Below are positions 6,969 to 23,500 of a stretch of DNA of 64,000 bases, piece by piece. The translations under genes were made by a program, and so were the position numbers. The notes beneath the pieces are model-generated. The model was not told the origin of the DNA and searched no databases. It worked only from the letters and a program-made list of their open reading frames with translations. How positions within the stretch are numbered: the first letter of the stretch is position 1; every line of letters begins with the position of its first letter. The stretch is from Pectobacterium parmentieri (lineage in GTDB: Bacteria > Pseudomonadota > Gammaproteobacteria > Enterobacterales > Enterobacteriaceae), in NCBI RefSeq assembly GCF_001742145.1, contig NZ_CP015749.1:4402001-4466000 (forward strand), given 5' to 3'.

Positions 6969-7439
6969 TTAAAAAGGGAATGCAGTCACAACCCGATTAG
7001 TACCAGGCTCAACAACAATTCTTATATTATCTAGTATCGGATTTCCTGCTGCGGCACCTTTTACCCCTCCGGCTATTCCTGCATTTGGATAAGGGATATC
7101 ATAAATCCAATTTCCATTACCCGGATCTTCAATATAAGGTGATATCCCTTTTTTCTTCGCGATATTCCAAGCATCTTCTACTTGGTCTAGTGACGTTTCT
7201 GAGAAAACAGAATGTACCGCTCTATTAGGCATATCCACATCATGTCTCATAACGTGATCTAAAGCATCTTCGCCTTTATGATTTATGCGACTCCAATCTA
7301 AATCACCTTCAGGCAAATGACCAGTACACTTTCTAACCAACCCAAGCGGATCAACCCATTCCAGCGGATTATGCACGTAGGCTTGAGGTCGGATACCACC
7401 CAGCAACCCTATCGGGTCATAGGGACAACTCCGGTGCAA
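6969..7439 (-). CDS. Displaced Rhs toxin tip, probable BECR-fold RNase
   Basis: A 156-codon frame beginning with a TTG in non-Rhs sequence (MHRSCPY), then DPIGLLGG, NPLEWVDPLGL and a tip of about 100 residues. The tip has GEDALDHVMRHDVDMPNRAV, a central DAW..A helix and an ending RIVVEPGTNRVVTAFPF. The His-rich first helix and the final (V)T(A)FP strand are features of BECR-fold RNases (EndoU/colicin D/E5-like); this is a fold-level guess. The Rhs core is absent: the junction is exactly at the codons for DPIGL, next to the integrative element. No ribosome site is seen before the TTG. Confidence 0.7.
   Translation of the reverse strand: MHRSCPYDPIGLLGGIRPQAYVHNPLEWVDPLGLVRKCTGHLPEGDLDWSRINHKGEDALDHVMRHDVDMPNRAVHSVFSETSLDQVEDAWNIAKKKGISPYIEDPGNGNWIYDIPYPNAGIAGGVKGAAAGNPILDNIRIVVEPGTNRVVTAFPF
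7407..7424. other. Putative recombination core (att) at the DPIGL codons, copy 1
   Basis: CCCTAT-cgggtc-ATAGGG: perfect 6-bp inverted arms around a 6-bp spacer. The left arm and spacer belong to the Rhs DPIGL coding sequence; the right arm belongs to the element carrying the integrase at 8343. The layout matches the core sites of tyrosine recombinases. The same 18 bp recur at 14132, and the left arm plus spacer (cctatcgggtc) lie in the intact rhs at 20999. Confidence 0.55.
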
Positions 7440-8342
7440 TCGTACTTTTTAGCGCACTTAACCTATTGAAGCAACAGCCTTTTTAAGTCGCGTTTTTTGC
7501 CAGCGTAACAACGTTTTAACCCGAACACCCCGACGCGCACTTTTACCCGCAGACACGCTACCGCCATGCTGTGACGTCCCTGTCTGCCTGCGCCACATCA
7601 TAGCAGCGGCGTCAGCCGCTGCCATTAGTCGTTTCCTGTTGAACCGGGTTTTATCGCGGCGCAAGCCGTTCCGCAGCTTGCCTGTGGGACGGTGAAGCGT
7701 CTGCCGGGTGCGGGCTGGCGAGGCCCGCAAGACAAGAGGTCAAGCAGGGAGGCCCCCGGCGGGGGCCGCACGGGGCGGAGATGGCGAGCACGGGAACGAG
7801 CGAGGAGCCTGCGACTGCGAGCCGGGCACAGCCAGTGCAGCGGGGTTGGGGCGGGGGCGAGGTAACGCCTTTCAGCGGAGGCCGTCAGGCCGACAACCCC
7901 CTGTTCTGTTGACGTTGATGTTTGCTGAAGGTTGACGCCGGAGCCAGCGCCGCCAGGGAGGGCGGCCACACCGTGAGAGCCGAAGAACGGGCGCGATGTT
8001 CGCAGCAGAGCGAGCCTGCGAGCTGTGCGCCGCGCTGTGCTGAGGAGCACAACCCCGGCGGCCAGCCGCACGCCGATGCTGAAGCAGCACGCAACGCGCC
8101 CTTAGCCTGCCCGGCGCCGATATAATGTGTGTTACGCGTGGGTTGCGTTCAGCAACTTTCGCGTAATGCCACATTATGTTGAATGACGTTCGGCCAGCAA
8201 CGATGCTTGCAGAGCGTGATGACGGTGAGCGCTGGCCGGGCGACATTTACCGCCGGAGTGCCTTAGCCACATAAGGCAAGCGGTGCGCCACGGACGGCGC
8301 AGCGTTTGCCCTGCACCGTCCTGCGATGTTGAAGAGAGTGAG
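7425..8342. other. GC-rich noncoding lead of cassette 1
   Basis: Between the att core and the integrase stop there is about 900 bp without a credible gene. Bases 7425-7975 are almost identical to the second copy; about 7976-8120 is unrelated in sequence though equally GC-rich; then a large inverted repeat (8122-8177) and a second conserved stretch follow. Open frames here are long only because of the base composition. It could hold a replication origin used by the primase, or recombinase accessory sites. Confidence 0.5.
8122..8177. repeat. Large inverted repeat with variable apical hairpin, copy 1
   Basis: Arms ATAATGTG and CACATTAT, then TTACGCG and CGCGTAA, enclose an inner hairpin gttgc-gttca-gcaac. 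The outer arms are kept in the second copy (14844-14906) while the inner hairpin there has a quite different sequence that still pairs. No T-run follows, so it is not a typical terminator of the integrase. Confidence 0.7.
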
Positions 8343-20586: not shown

Positions 20587-23500
20587 GGTGTCTTATGCCT
20601 TATAGGATCTAAAGTCTGTCTATGTTTATCAGCATTTTTAAGTTCCCATTCTAAGATTCTTTTCCTAGCTCCGGGACCCGCAGGCTCTTGGTGAACAACT
20701 CTGGCACTATATTTCTCTTTGCCTAATTCATTTCTGCCTACCTCTTTATTCCATTTACGGACTTGGGTATTTGCACGAGGAGAACTTAATTCACCATTTG
20801 GCCCGACTTTCAGTTTAGATTGGCTCACACCAGTTTTAACCACATTTCCCGTATCGTTATCGATAATCTCATAACCATGTTGGGCTTTCTGAGAGTTCTT
20901 GGAGTTACCGTGTGGCCCTTTCTTATCCAACCCGAACGGATCGACCCACTCCAGCGGATTGTGAACATACGCTTGAGGTCTAATGCCACCAAGTAAACCT
21001 ATCGGGTCCGGCGATAAATACTGCCCGCTCTCTGCATCATAGTAACGATGCCGGTTGTAGTAAAGCCGCGTTTCTGCATCGTACAACTGTCCCTGATAGC
21101 GCAGTTCACAGTACACTTCTTCGTTGGCCGCATCCCCCAGATAACGTCGGAGGGGGATAGGGCGTCTTTCTTCACGGTGTGCGCCCCACAGACCCTGTTC
21201 GCCGCGCCAGTGAACGTCGCCTTCCTCGCTGCACAGCTCTCTGGCGGTGCCTGCCAGGTCGGTGACGATGTAGTGCAACTGCGTGTCGCCGCCTTGTGCC
21301 TCGACCTGTGCCAGTGGCCGGAAGCTGCCCGGCTCGTACACCCACTGTACCTCCCGTGCCGCTGACCCGTCCGCCCGGTACTGCTGCTGGCCGATAAGCT
21401 GGTCACCGTCCCAGCGGTATGCCACCCGCGCTACCGCCTGCGTCGACGGCACTTGTCCCTCACGCACCTTGTTGATCCTGCGACCAAATACATCATAACG
21501 ATAGCGCCACCGTGCGCCGTCCGGCAGGCTCACCCGCACCAGCCGGTCCTGCACGTCCCAGTCAAAGTGGGTTTCCTTCGGCCTGAACCCCGGACGCGTT
21601 TCCCGTTTTACTGCCAGACGCCCGCAGTCGTCATACTGGTACTGCGTATGGCCCCGTTCGACTACCCGGCCCGCGGCATCATACCGTGCCGATGCTTGCA
21701 CTACCGCATCCTGCACTTTTAGTGTCTGAGCCAGACCCGGCGCTATCTGTGACACCTCGCACAGGTTCTGTTCGCTGTCGTAGCCAAACAGGCGAGCCTG
21801 ACGGCGGCGTCCCTCGTCACGGCGCTCCGCCGTGACCTGACCGGCCCCGTTCAATCGGAAGGCCTGTTCACCCCAGTGGCTGTCGCTGATACCGGTCAGA
21901 CGGTCCAGCACATCATACTGGTAGCGGCGCTCCAGCACGTCATTGACGCGGCCATCGGCCCCTTCCAGCGCCTGACGCTGTAGCAGCCCGGTCGGACTCC
22001 ATTCATGGCGTAATGAAAACCCGCAGCCGTTGCTGCGCCGCTGCTCTTCGCCTGCCGCGGTATGGCTGAACTGCAATGGCTGGTGTGAACCGATACCCAA
22101 TGATGACAGGCGTCCCGACTGCCAGGCCAGTTGCAGCGGCGCCAGAATACCGTCGACCAGGGCACGCTGACCGCCGGCGTCGTAAGTGCTCTGTATCGCC
22201 TCGCCGTTGACCGTTTCCGAGGTGACCTGACCGGCCCGGTTATAGGTGTATTCTACGACGGCATCGGGGCTGGCGGCTTTGGTGAGCCGTCCCGCGACGT
22301 CATAGTCCAGTTCGGTGATGCTGTCCGTTTCCCCGTCGGCCCGACGAGCGGTGATACGCGTGATGCGACCAGCCACATCATGTTCGTAATGCAGCGTGCT
22401 GCCATCCGGTGCGGTACGCAGCACCAGACGGTCGGCCACATCGTAGTGATAGCGGTACACCCGACCGTCGTAATGCCGCTCTTCACTCAGTCGTCCGCCG
22501 TGGTCAAAGCTGTACGTCCAGTCCCGTCCCTGGCTGTTTGTTACGCCAGCGAACTCGGCTTCCGCATTGTAGTGGTAGTGTACCGTGGCCCCCAGCGGGT
22601 CGGTTGCTTCCAGCAGGTTATCGAACGCGCCGTAGCGGAACTGGTAGCGCTGCCCCAGTGCATCCGTTACCGCCGTCAGGTTACCTTCCACATCGTAACC
22701 AAACCGTGTCTCGCTGCCGTCTTCATACACTACTTTCGACGGTGACTCGCGTACGCCATCATACTCCCAGCGGCGAACCTGCACGCCCGCTTCATGCCCA
22801 ATGTGCCGCTCTGTCAGGCGATCAAGGTCGTCGTACCGGAACATCACGGGTGGTGCATTATCTCGCTCAAGGCTACTCAGCAGGCCACGGCGGTTGTAGT
22901 GATAACGCTGCAACAGGCCGTCCGGAGCTATCACGATCGACAGTTGTCCCGTATCAGCATAACGGTACAGCCATTCACGCCCTTCCGGGTCGTTCACCTC
23001 GATAACCTGCCCGGCCTCGTTACGGTGGTAGCGCCATTCGCTGCCCAGTGGGTCGGCATAGGCGAGCAGTTGCCCGTTGCCGTCATACGTGTATCGATGT
23101 GTGGCTCCATCCGGCAGGGCCACCTCGGTCATCAGCCCCCAGTCATTGCGCTGGTATACCGTGCGGCCACCCAACGGGTCAGTCTCCGCCATCAGTTGGT
23201 TGTTGACCCACTCAAACCGGGTCTCGCCCCCGTCAGGCGTGCGTTTGAGCAGGATATTGTTGCGTTCGTCGCGCACATAGCTGAATACCCCGCCAAACCC
23301 GCTGTGGTAGTGGCTCGTCAGGGTATCGTCGTCATATTCAAAGTGACCCGGCCAGTAGCCTTCCGAGGTTCTGTCCCGGATTGCGCGGCCTTTTTTATCG
23401 TAATCGTGCTCAACCCAGGTCGAACCTAAATCCGACCAGCGCAACAGCCAGCCTTCCGGCGAATAGCGATAATCGAAGTTACGGCCCTCATCTGCACGCA

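What the first reader, a model, noticed from the sequence alone, without database searches (positions are those of the whole stretch)
7407..21009. Possible site-specific cassette system that switches Rhs toxin tips
Two displaced tips (6969-7439, 13682-14164) leave Rhs homology exactly at the GACCCG coding for DP of DPIGL, and the same element sequence (reading TTGTCCCTAT) is joined there. If a circle carrying attP CCCTAT-gacccg(minus strand)-ATAGG, then tip, immunity, symE, HTH, primase and integrase, recombined at the DPIGL codons of a resident rhs, the new tip would be fused in frame to the core and the old tip would end up behind the integrase. That is precisely the observed order. Rhs tip exchange is usually explained by homologous recombination; an integrase dedicated to the DPIGL site, carrying its own tip and immunity, is not something I know to be described.
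Basis: partly seen in the sequence, partly recalled or inferred. Interest (0 to 1): 0.92.

Follow-up and report, generated by a model that had tools for sequence, protein, structure and literature searches.

The report
Integrase elements that swap Rhs toxins
A small mobile DNA element carries its own toxin end and antidote, and appears to use its own integrase to splice that toxin end in frame onto a bacterium's Rhs toxin-delivery gene, pushing the old toxin end aside.

Summary
Two tandem elements (6865 and 6725 bp) sit between an rhs core and a coreless old tip. Each runs from the DP codons of DPIGL to ...CCCTAT and carries tip, immunity gene, symE, HTH gene, primase and a XerC-like tyrosine integrase.

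Elsewhere, 43 of 47 distinct right ends join an Rhs fragment at DPxGL codons; 4 do not. In one Pectobacterium genome a near-identical element lies in two different rhs genes, the unit running from GACCCG to GACCCG. E. coli JNE151685 and A34 lack the element; E2 and S10 carry two at that site, and the old tip is displaced exactly at GACCCG. Shared sequence bounding the crossover is 2-24 nt in 23 of 30 elements, which argues against homologous recombination. The att site is CCCTAT-GACCCG-ATAGGG, short inverted arms around 6 bp.

Related elements join Rhs at other conserved codons, and two appear joined to CdiA-type toxins. Jackson et al. [quoted passage not shown] Recombinase activity, excision and transfer are inferred. 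Reversible switching is unproven.

The parts
21009..25865 (-). resident rhs core (N-terminal part of the 1760-aa ORF 20583-25865), RHS repeats
   Evidence: Pfam RHS_repeat 1.7e-62 and RHS 3.9e-12; NCBIfam RHS_core match below its cut-off, 220 versus 2000 bits; DPIGL begins at 21008
20997..21008 (-). attL: GACCCGATAGGT, the DP-I-G codons where core and element tip are fused
   Evidence: left end of the unit by comparison
14144..21008 (-). element 2 (6865 bp): tip + immunity + symE + HTH + primase + integrase + non-coding tail
20583..21008 (-). element 2 tip, 141 aa from DPIGL, URI-type nuclease-like (Tox-URI2), fused in frame to the core
   Evidence: PF15653 1.9e-6 on the full ORF; sequence
19927..20586 (-). 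element 2 putative immunity gene (position only)
   Evidence: ORF; no Pfam family
19576..19857 (+). element 2 symE
   Evidence: lies in the 88% alignment with element 1; both symE copies are 96% identical to the reference copy 386-553 over 168 nt
19153..19554 (+). element 2 HTH regulator
   Evidence: ORF; lies in the 88% alignment with element 1
16160..19039 (-). element 2 DnaG-type primase
   Evidence: Zn_ribbon_DnaG 2.7e-25, Toprim_2 1.1e-17
15071..16114 (-). element 2 XerC-like tyrosine recombinase
   Evidence: Phage_integrase 5.1e-37
14144..15070 (-). element 2 right end without an assigned gene, finishing ...GTTGTCCCTAT
   Evidence: tail model E 1.1e-17
14132..14149 (-). internal att CCCTAT-GACCCG-ATAGGG (element 2 tail | element 1 tip)
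7419..14143 (-). element 1 (6725 bp), same order
13682..14143 (-). element 1 tip, coreless, begins at DPIGL
   Evidence: weak Rhs_assc_core match below cut-off
13186..13674 (-). element 1 immunity gene (CdiI family)
   Evidence: PF07262 2.8e-9
12838..13119 (+). element 1 symE
   Evidence: PF08845 3.4e-23
12415..12816 (+). element 1 HTH_3 regulator
   Evidence: PF01381 9.3e-16
9431..12301 (-). element 1 DnaG-type primase
   Evidence: Zn_ribbon_DnaG 3.1e-25, Toprim_2 3.2e-12
8343..9386 (-). element 1 XerC-like tyrosine recombinase (PRK01287 family)
   Evidence: NF002331 574 bits, cut-off 371
7419..8342 (-). element 1 right end without an assigned gene, finishing ...GTTGTCCCTAT
7407..7424 (-). 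attR CCCTAT-GACCCG-ATAGGG (element 1 tail | displaced old tip)
6969..7418 (-). displaced older tip, coreless
6635..6958 (-). ORF after the displaced tip, possible old immunity gene (position only)
   Evidence: no Pfam family

Best explanation
This is an integrative mobile element specialised on rhs genes. The unit is mostly 6.3-7.5 kb: a toxin tip that begins with the DPIGL codons, its immunity gene, symE, an HTH regulator, a DnaG-type primase, a XerC-like tyrosine recombinase and about 0.9 kb of right end finishing ...CCCTAT. In the proposed cycle a circular form has attP = CCCTAT-GACCCG-ATAGGG. The recombinase recombines it with the GACCCGATAGG that encodes DP-I-G in a resident rhs gene. The core is thereby fused in frame to the new tip. 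The old tip and its immunity gene end up directly behind the element tail, without a core. Repeated integration builds arrays. Shown by sequence: exact ends, in-frame fusion, displacement, one unit in two very different rhs genes, and empty versus occupied states of one locus. Inferred: that this recombinase does the catalysis, that circles form and move between cells, that the tips are active toxins, and any role of symE, the HTH gene and the primase.
For: Right ends: 47 of 47 distinct junctions start GA[CT]; 43 of 47 are DPxGL codons of an Rhs fragment that lacks its core. Left ends: site held for 44 of 85 integrase entries; 23 fused in frame to a core open for at least 100 codons, 11 preceded by another element's tail. 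Mobility: three near-identical 6591-bp elements in Pectobacterium G003, two in one rhs locus and one in an rhs gene whose core matches only at about 28%. The coreless copy aligns with the distant one from GACCCG to GACCCGATAGG (99.985% over 6602 bp); both core fusions are in frame. Empty site: E. coli JNE151685 and A34 versus E2 and S10, flanks 99.0-99.9% identical. Against JNE151685 the match resumes exactly at GACCCG, 1354 nt exact to the right and 0 to the left. Off target: a copy splits a phage terminase gene and begins at the DPIGL of its own tip. Crossover bounds of 2-24 nt in 23 of 30 elements. Inverted arms best at spacer 6: 4.79 of 6 matches, next best 2.28. Catalytic R and K in 95 of 95 rows, H 84, R 90, H 86, Y 86. 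A coreless 11,289-bp circular record from Lonsdalea populi holds two elements att to att. DPIGL Ile is ATA in 26 of 26 core-fused Pectobacterium sites versus 1 of 97 Ile codons just upstream.
Against: No activity was measured. The Lonsdalea circle could be an assembly product of a tandem array. The Shigella 8,758-bp circle keeps a core fragment and an intact chromosomal-type junction, so it looks like a homologous-recombination product, not integrase excision. Three of 47 right ends are not in Rhs and one is in another Rhs motif. Nine further tails were left out because the contig ends within 30 nt, and one of these (L042) does not continue with GA. The tail model was trained on tails chosen for a following DP-like motif, so 43 of 47 is not a blind count, and 60 of 126 integrase genes gave no tail at E 0.01 (short contigs or distant families). 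Junctions are not all independent. The empty-site E. coli cores are annotated as split ORFs, and the S10 core junction has a 1-nt deletion. E2 and S10 also contain core fragments and ISEc1 copies, so homologous recombination acts there too. The seven elements with long shared runs (62-90 nt) lie in tandem arrays, the window's element 1 among them, and do not discriminate. The ATA contrast is absent in E. coli (5 of 5, but 13 of 28 upstream) and in Photorhabdus/Xenorhabdus (1 of 3), and common descent could also explain it.
Confidence: 0.9

Rival explanations
1. Tips are exchanged by RecA-dependent homologous recombination in the core or in the about 80-nt DPIGL...DPxGL segment, via circles, as Jackson et al. 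2009 proposed; the integrase genes are bystanders.
For: This is the published model (passages). Other orphan tips in this window and in integrase-free loci do keep core sequence. The Shigella circle fits it.
Against: Shared sequence around the crossover is only 2-24 nt in 23 of 30 elements and 7 nt or less in 8. The element moved between cores that match at only about 28%. An insertion in a phage terminase gene shares only GAT. The element's tail has no homology to the core.
Confidence: 0.05
2. An ordinary integrative element uses DPIGL as its attB, and the tip next to the core is host-owned rather than part of the element.
For: Many integrative elements use conserved 3' gene ends (recalled).
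Against: The mobile unit defined by identity between two rhs loci includes tip and immunity gene. At an off-target site the unit starts at the DPIGL of its own tip with no Rhs upstream. The element-free E. coli genomes carry the displaced tip, not the new one, on the core.
Confidence: 0.03
3. A reversible switch: excision of the front element restores the previous tip, so a cell flips between stored tips.
For: Tandem elements with direct att repeats would allow it. E. coli R12 and FDAARGOS_1373 differ by one 6812-bp att-to-att unit.
Against: I did not find a genome pair that shows loss of a front element in a clonal background, and did not search for one systematically. The R12 difference is behind the front element and can also arise by homologous recombination, because the tails are identical for 770 nt.
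Confidence: 0.3
4. The window's pattern is a local tandem duplication artefact.
For: The two elements are 88% identical over 5828 bp.
Against: The tips and immunity genes are not alignable. The same boundaries recur in many genera and between empty and occupied loci.
Confidence: 0.01

Closest known systems
Rhs C-terminal tip displacement (Jackson et al. 2009, PMC2935791; passages seen)
   Same: Old tips displaced downstream; circular intermediates invoked; arrays of orphan tips.
   Different: [quoted passage not shown] Here an integrase-bearing unit joins at fixed codons and crosses between very different cores.
Integrative elements / genomic islands with tyrosine recombinases that use 3' ends of genes (recalled, for example e14 in icd)
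   Same: XerC-like recombinase, short direct repeats at the ends, a gene end replaced at integration.
   Different: The carried gene end is the cargo: a new toxin tip with its immunity gene.
Integron cassettes (recalled)
   Same: Tyrosine-recombinase capture of cassettes into arrays.
   Different: Each unit carries its own recombinase; cargo is fused to a host ORF; scores below the integron-integrase cut-off. attC-type sites were not searched for.
Shufflon of plasmid R64 pilV (recalled)
   Same: A tyrosine recombinase exchanges C-terminal coding segments of one gene.
   Different: Shufflons invert resident segments; here sites are direct repeats and new segments arrive by insertion.
XerC/D recombinases beside polyimmunity loci (Zhang et al. 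2012, PMC3482391; passage seen)
   Same: A XerC/D-type recombinase next to polymorphic-toxin genes.
   Different: That passage concerns accumulation of immunity genes and does not describe tip exchange or sites.

Membership tests
Tyrosine recombinase, XerC-like subfamily PRK01287 (NF002331) | score over curated cut-off | tested here: met
   574 bits versus cut-off 371
Tyrosine recombinase, XerC-like subfamily PRK01287 (NF002331) | catalytic R-K-H-R-H-Y (motif recalled) | tested here: met
   R192, K217, H289, R292, H315, Y324 in the window protein; R and K in 95 of 95 rows, H 84, R 90, H 86, Y 86; 24 of the 34 departures are gaps
Chromosomal XerC / XerD (dif recombinases) | equivalog score TIGR02224 / TIGR02225 | tested here: not met
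   233 versus cut-off 335 and 227 versus 330 bits; the genome has separate, only 30-36% identical relatives at L003 and L004
Integrative mobile element | precise ends with short direct repeats | tested here: met
   GACCCGATAGG at both ends in the window and G003; shorter in some others
Integrative mobile element | empty and occupied sites in related genomes | tested here: met
   E. coli JNE151685 and A34 versus E2 and S10
Integrative mobile element | excised circular form | tested here: inconclusive
   one coreless circular record, Lonsdalea populi; the Shigella circle does not fit
Integrative mobile element | recombinase-dependent movement | not testable with these tools
   needs an experiment
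Integron | integron integrase | tested here: not met
   integrase_gron 116 versus cut-off 265 bits
Integron | attC sites | not tested
   not searched for
ICE (self-transmissible element) | relaxase or conjugation genes inside the unit | tested here: not met
   none of the 10 proteins gave a relaxase or conjugation family; smaller ORFs not scanned
Phage or phage satellite | virion genes, or presence in virus collections | tested here: not met
   no virion family; 11 viral-contig loci, matches 27-34% or short pieces (63% over 64 and 53% over 38 residues); 13 phage records, best 34% identical
Shufflon-type inversion system | inverted recombination sites around segments | tested here: not met
   the two att copies are direct repeats (same strand); no inverted repeats of 40 nt or more in 1-30000
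Rhs polymorphic toxin | RHS repeats plus variable tip after DPxGL plus immunity gene | tested here: met
   toxicity not tested, and element 2's immunity gene is assigned by position only

The most novel reading that the evidence does not exclude
A whole class of mobile elements (HTH gene, DnaG-type primase, XerC-like integrase) is dedicated to the core-tip boundary of polymorphic toxins in general. Different members target different conserved codons of Rhs cores (DPIGL, YNYFRDYDP, FxGQYxD, WNSQNQL), and some have moved to CdiA/TPS-type toxins. These elements would be a main source of toxin-tip diversity and of orphan-tip arrays, whose symE remnants are their scars.
Probability: 0.72. Interest if true: 0.96.

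Novelty: new variant of a known kind. Interest (0 to 1): 0.92.

Why it matters
How Rhs and other polymorphic toxins acquire new C-terminal domains while old ones are left downstream has been explained by homologous recombination. Jackson et al. [quoted passage not shown] A dedicated integrase element answers those points. It explains exchange between very different cores, the exact DPxGL boundary, and at least part of the arrays. It also makes the question directly testable with a reporter assay. If the wider class is real, similar elements shape CdiA toxins as well.

Tried and rejected
Homologous recombination as the main mechanism was rejected from crossover bounds. The Shigella circle was first taken as an excised form and then rejected because it keeps a core fragment and the chromosomal-type junction. 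A virus or satellite reading was not supported. Host dif/Xer hijacking was considered: the recombinase carried is not the chromosomal equivalog, and the att sequence does not resemble dif (dif recalled, not aligned). Looking for the window's old tip in 24 other Pectobacterium genomes failed: outside the window's own copy, matches reach at most about 110 nt. Repeats that might be a replication origin in the 0.9-kb right end: one weak direct and one inverted pair.

Integrase tree against target site (95 rows, 'quick' method, long branches): all labels together cluster (30 changes versus a shuffled mean of 44.5, as low in 0 of 200), but FxGQYxD (6 changes for 6 rows) and second-DP labels do not. 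So I claim no one-clade-one-site rule.

Rows left out or unresolved: distant integrases L066, L075, L196, L198, L199, L201, L202, L203, L205 and L210 were not resolved (L072 shows a possible Rhs motif only); for L200 and L208 an Rhs fragment lies upstream but no junction was placed. Of 18 plasmid records with the integrase (15 listed) I opened 8: the Enterobacter sp. JBIWA005 record shows no toxin core next to the integrase, Providencia has an invasin-domain protein upstream without a placed junction, and Caballeronia was fetched but not analysed. In one search, 9 tails with less than 30 nt beyond the junction were dropped; 4 of them continue with GACC, 4 stop at the junction, 1 (L042) does not continue with GA. 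One search counted one circular record wrongly (L227); one search repeats it without that record, and the tail count falls from 12 to 11.

Ten searches of the paper library and passages of eight papers showed no description of a site-specific Rhs tip integrase. Most papers were seen as listings only, and the library lacks most subscription journals.
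Full report
What is in the window. The window is part of a 5.03-Mb chromosome. Two of its same-genus genomes have the contig lengths of Pectobacterium aroidearum L6 and Pectobacterium sp. PL152. On the minus strand a 1760-aa Rhs protein (20583-25865) has its DPIGL codons at 21008. From there two units follow in tandem: 14144-21008 (6865 bp) and 7419-14143 (6725 bp). Each holds tip, immunity gene, symE and HTH gene (on the opposite strand), a DnaG-type primase, a XerC-like integrase and about 0.9 kb without an assigned gene, ending ...GTTGTCCCTAT. 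Behind the second unit lies an older, coreless tip (6969-7418). The two backbones are 88% identical over 5828 bp and the first 92 nt are 75% identical, but the tips and immunity genes between do not align. The orphan tips at 1359, 4571 and 6008 keep core sequence upstream, whereas the two behind element tails are cut exactly at GACCCG.

The same junction elsewhere. One scan of genome contigs kept the best 80 of 264 relatives of the integrase, giving 73 loci. Together with stretches from whole genomes, plasmids and E. coli, 126 integrase genes were examined with a model of the last 60 nt before the junction. 66 tails scored E 0.01 or better, 57 of them with at least 30 nt beyond the junction, and these reduce to 47 distinct junctions. 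All 47 continue with GA[CT]; 43 continue with GA[CT]CC and encode DPxGL of an Rhs fragment (37 the first DPxGL with the usual NP...DPxGL context, 6 a second or truncated DPxGL). The four exceptions are L032 (another Rhs motif, DHQGT) and L041, L047 and L048 in Photorhabdus thracensis. The model was trained on tails chosen for a following DP-like motif, which is a bias in its favour, and some junctions are close relatives of each other. Genera with this junction include Pectobacterium, Serratia, Brenneria, Dickeya, Edaphovirga, Lonsdalea, Xenorhabdus, Photorhabdus and Escherichia. Within the 25-genome Pectobacterium sample 10 genomes carry the integrase, in 28 places.

Left ends. Of 85 integrase entries (at least 300 bits; four duplicate loci and L227 dropped) the left DP site is held for 44: 23 are fused in frame to a core open for at least 100 codons, 11 follow the tail of another element, and 10 are other. 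Of those 10, six are contig ends at or near the site (L007, L008, L012, L013, L023, L059), one core has a stop (L017), two are altered E. coli junctions (E2 and S10), and one (L048) is the off-target insertion. The core endings vary (GQYLSP, GRFTTQ, GCYVSP, GRFMVT, GRFISP and others).

Movement. In complete Pectobacterium genome G003 three near-identical 6591-bp elements occur: two in tandem in one rhs locus and one about 1 Mb away in an rhs gene whose core matches the queries at only about 28% protein identity. The coreless tandem copy aligns with the distant one from the first G of GACCCG to GACCCGATAGG, 99.985% over 6602 bp. The core-fused tandem copy aligns 66 nt further, into the ends of the two cores (99.67% over 6669 bp). 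Both core fusions are in frame, and the displaced tips differ. In Photorhabdus thracensis a copy (100% over 7377 bp) lies inside a phage terminase large-subunit gene (TerL_ATPase profile positions 1-125 on one side, 121-176 on the other, with an insertion sequence-like ORF between), and its left end starts at the DPIGL of its own tip. So the tip belongs to the unit. L047, an identical copy fused to an Rhs core, has another terminase gene at its right end, perhaps after a rearrangement.

Empty and occupied sites. E. coli JNE151685 and A34 have ansP ... vgrG - DcrB-like - rhs core | tip (DPIGLLGGINLYQY...) - immunity - ISEc1 ... yddH with no integrase. E2 and S10 have the same flanks at 99.0-99.9% identity but 16.7 and 15.8 kb more, with two integrases. 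Against JNE151685 the match resumes exactly at GACCCG: 1354 nt exact to the right, none to the left. The last tip and its immunity gene (WP_023155668.1) are thus displaced. Caveats: the element-free cores are annotated as split ORFs, and S10 has a 1-nt deletion at its core junction. I fetched three of the 40 listed hits (112 genomes matched), chosen because their annotation named an Rhs core. A weaker second comparison: in 200164 the match to MEI003 resumes at the same GAYCCG, but in MEI003 that tip stands behind a degraded core fragment, so it is not a clean empty site. R12 and FDAARGOS_1373 differ by one att-to-att unit of 6812 bp, though homologous recombination between identical tails could also do this. 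In all, 59 of 5,426 E. coli genomes match the integrase gene (200 places) and 55 match the right end (195 places).

Why site-specific. For 30 elements with both ends held, the run of identical bases that bounds the crossover is 2-24 nt in 23, and 7 nt or less in 8. RecA-dependent exchange needs longer identity (recalled). The consensus is ...GTCCCTAT-GACCCG-ATAGGG; the left and right six bases are complementary at 4.79 of 6 positions with a 6-bp spacer, against at most 2.28 for other spacers, the layout of Xer-type sites (recalled). Catalytic residues are largely conserved. In the Pectobacterium sample the Ile codon of core-fused DPIGL is ATA in 26 of 26 sites against 1 of 97 Ile codons in the 160 codons upstream, and in integrase-free loci 19 of 20 against 4 of 80. 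E. coli (5 of 5, but 13 of 28 upstream) and Photorhabdus/Xenorhabdus (1 of 3, 6 of 22 upstream) show no such contrast. Common descent of these segments could explain the pattern as well as selection on the site.

Free form. Lonsdalea populi record NZ_CP072857.1 is an 11,289-bp circle with two elements att to att and no core found; its junction of one element's tail with the other's tip fits an excised pair. An assembly product cannot be excluded. The Shigella flexneri 8,758-bp circle is better explained by recombination between core copies.

The wider class. Integrases 34-58% identical lie in elements whose right end meets Rhs at other conserved codons: YNYFRDYDP (L067, L068, L070, L078, L193, L194, L195), FxGQYxD (L051, L055, L056, L058, L073, L204) and WNSQNQL (L061, L062). 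These were placed by eye from translations, not by a model. Target labels cluster on the integrase tree overall but not for every site. In Trinickia soli two tandem elements follow a TPS/PT-VENN (CdiA-type) protein, read as two overlapping ORFs, and their tails appear joined to pre-toxin codons (GAIGGA). In Paraburkholderia sp. PREW-6R the displaced fragment matches the resident haemagglutinin from QTAIGGGSF onward at 46%. A Pseudomonas aeruginosa plasmid has the same gene order behind tpsA2, and a Janthinobacterium plasmid behind an FG-GAP protein; junctions there were not placed. An Enterobacter plasmid copy shows no toxin core. Several distant members remain unresolved (see Tried and rejected).

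Arrays. In 11 integrase-free loci, 30 of 42 core/tip units are followed within 2.5 kb by an antisense symE remnant, as if old elements had decayed to tip-immunity-symE. That is an inference.

Known or new. Jackson et al. [quoted passage not shown] Zhang et al. 2012 (PMC3482391, passage) noted XerC/D recombinases near polyimmunity loci. A term search in Poole et al. 2011 (PMC3150448) and in the 2023 Serratia paper (PMC10539506) found no 'integrase' or 'recombinase'. Within the ten searches listed I found no description of this system. I rate it a new variant of a known kind (integrative elements), with a function, toxin re-arming by in-frame tip insertion, that I have not seen described.

Noticed in passing
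window 263 and 3603: Two further tip fragments begin at GACCCG or GATCCGCTGG but are preceded by unrelated sequence (...TTGTTGCACAA| and ...CAGTAATAT|), possibly remnants of other element types.
   Followed up: no
window 6009-6274 and 4572-4837; also G000:C1 4389259-4389524 and 4398117-4398381: Orphan tips whose core fragment starts at nearly the same point, 265-266 bp before DP, in four places; in the window it abuts symE repeats. A shared ancestral junction spread by recombination, or another mechanism.
   Followed up: partly
L047, L048, L041 (Photorhabdus thracensis): Element right ends outside Rhs; L048 is a full off-target copy in a terminase large-subunit gene, identical to L047 over 7377 bp.
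   Followed up: partly
L227 (NZ_CP055112.1): Circular Shigella flexneri record that looks like a piece of an E. coli-type Rhs array made by recombination between core copies.
   Followed up: partly
L228, L249, L251, L252: Some elements carry extra toxin-antitoxin genes (RelE/DinJ-like, VbhA-like) next to the integrase or the HTH gene.
   Followed up: no
L064/L065, L250: The same element class behind CdiA/TPS-type proteins, apparently joined to pre-toxin codons.
   Followed up: partly
L007, L012, L019, L024: Draft contigs that start or stop exactly at the att junction, as expected for repeated or multi-context ends.
   Followed up: no
window 27928-29755: Three copies of a repeat spaced 764 bp apart (73-75% identical) over ORFs of 255-262 aa, upstream of the DUF4123 genes; not examined.
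   Followed up: no
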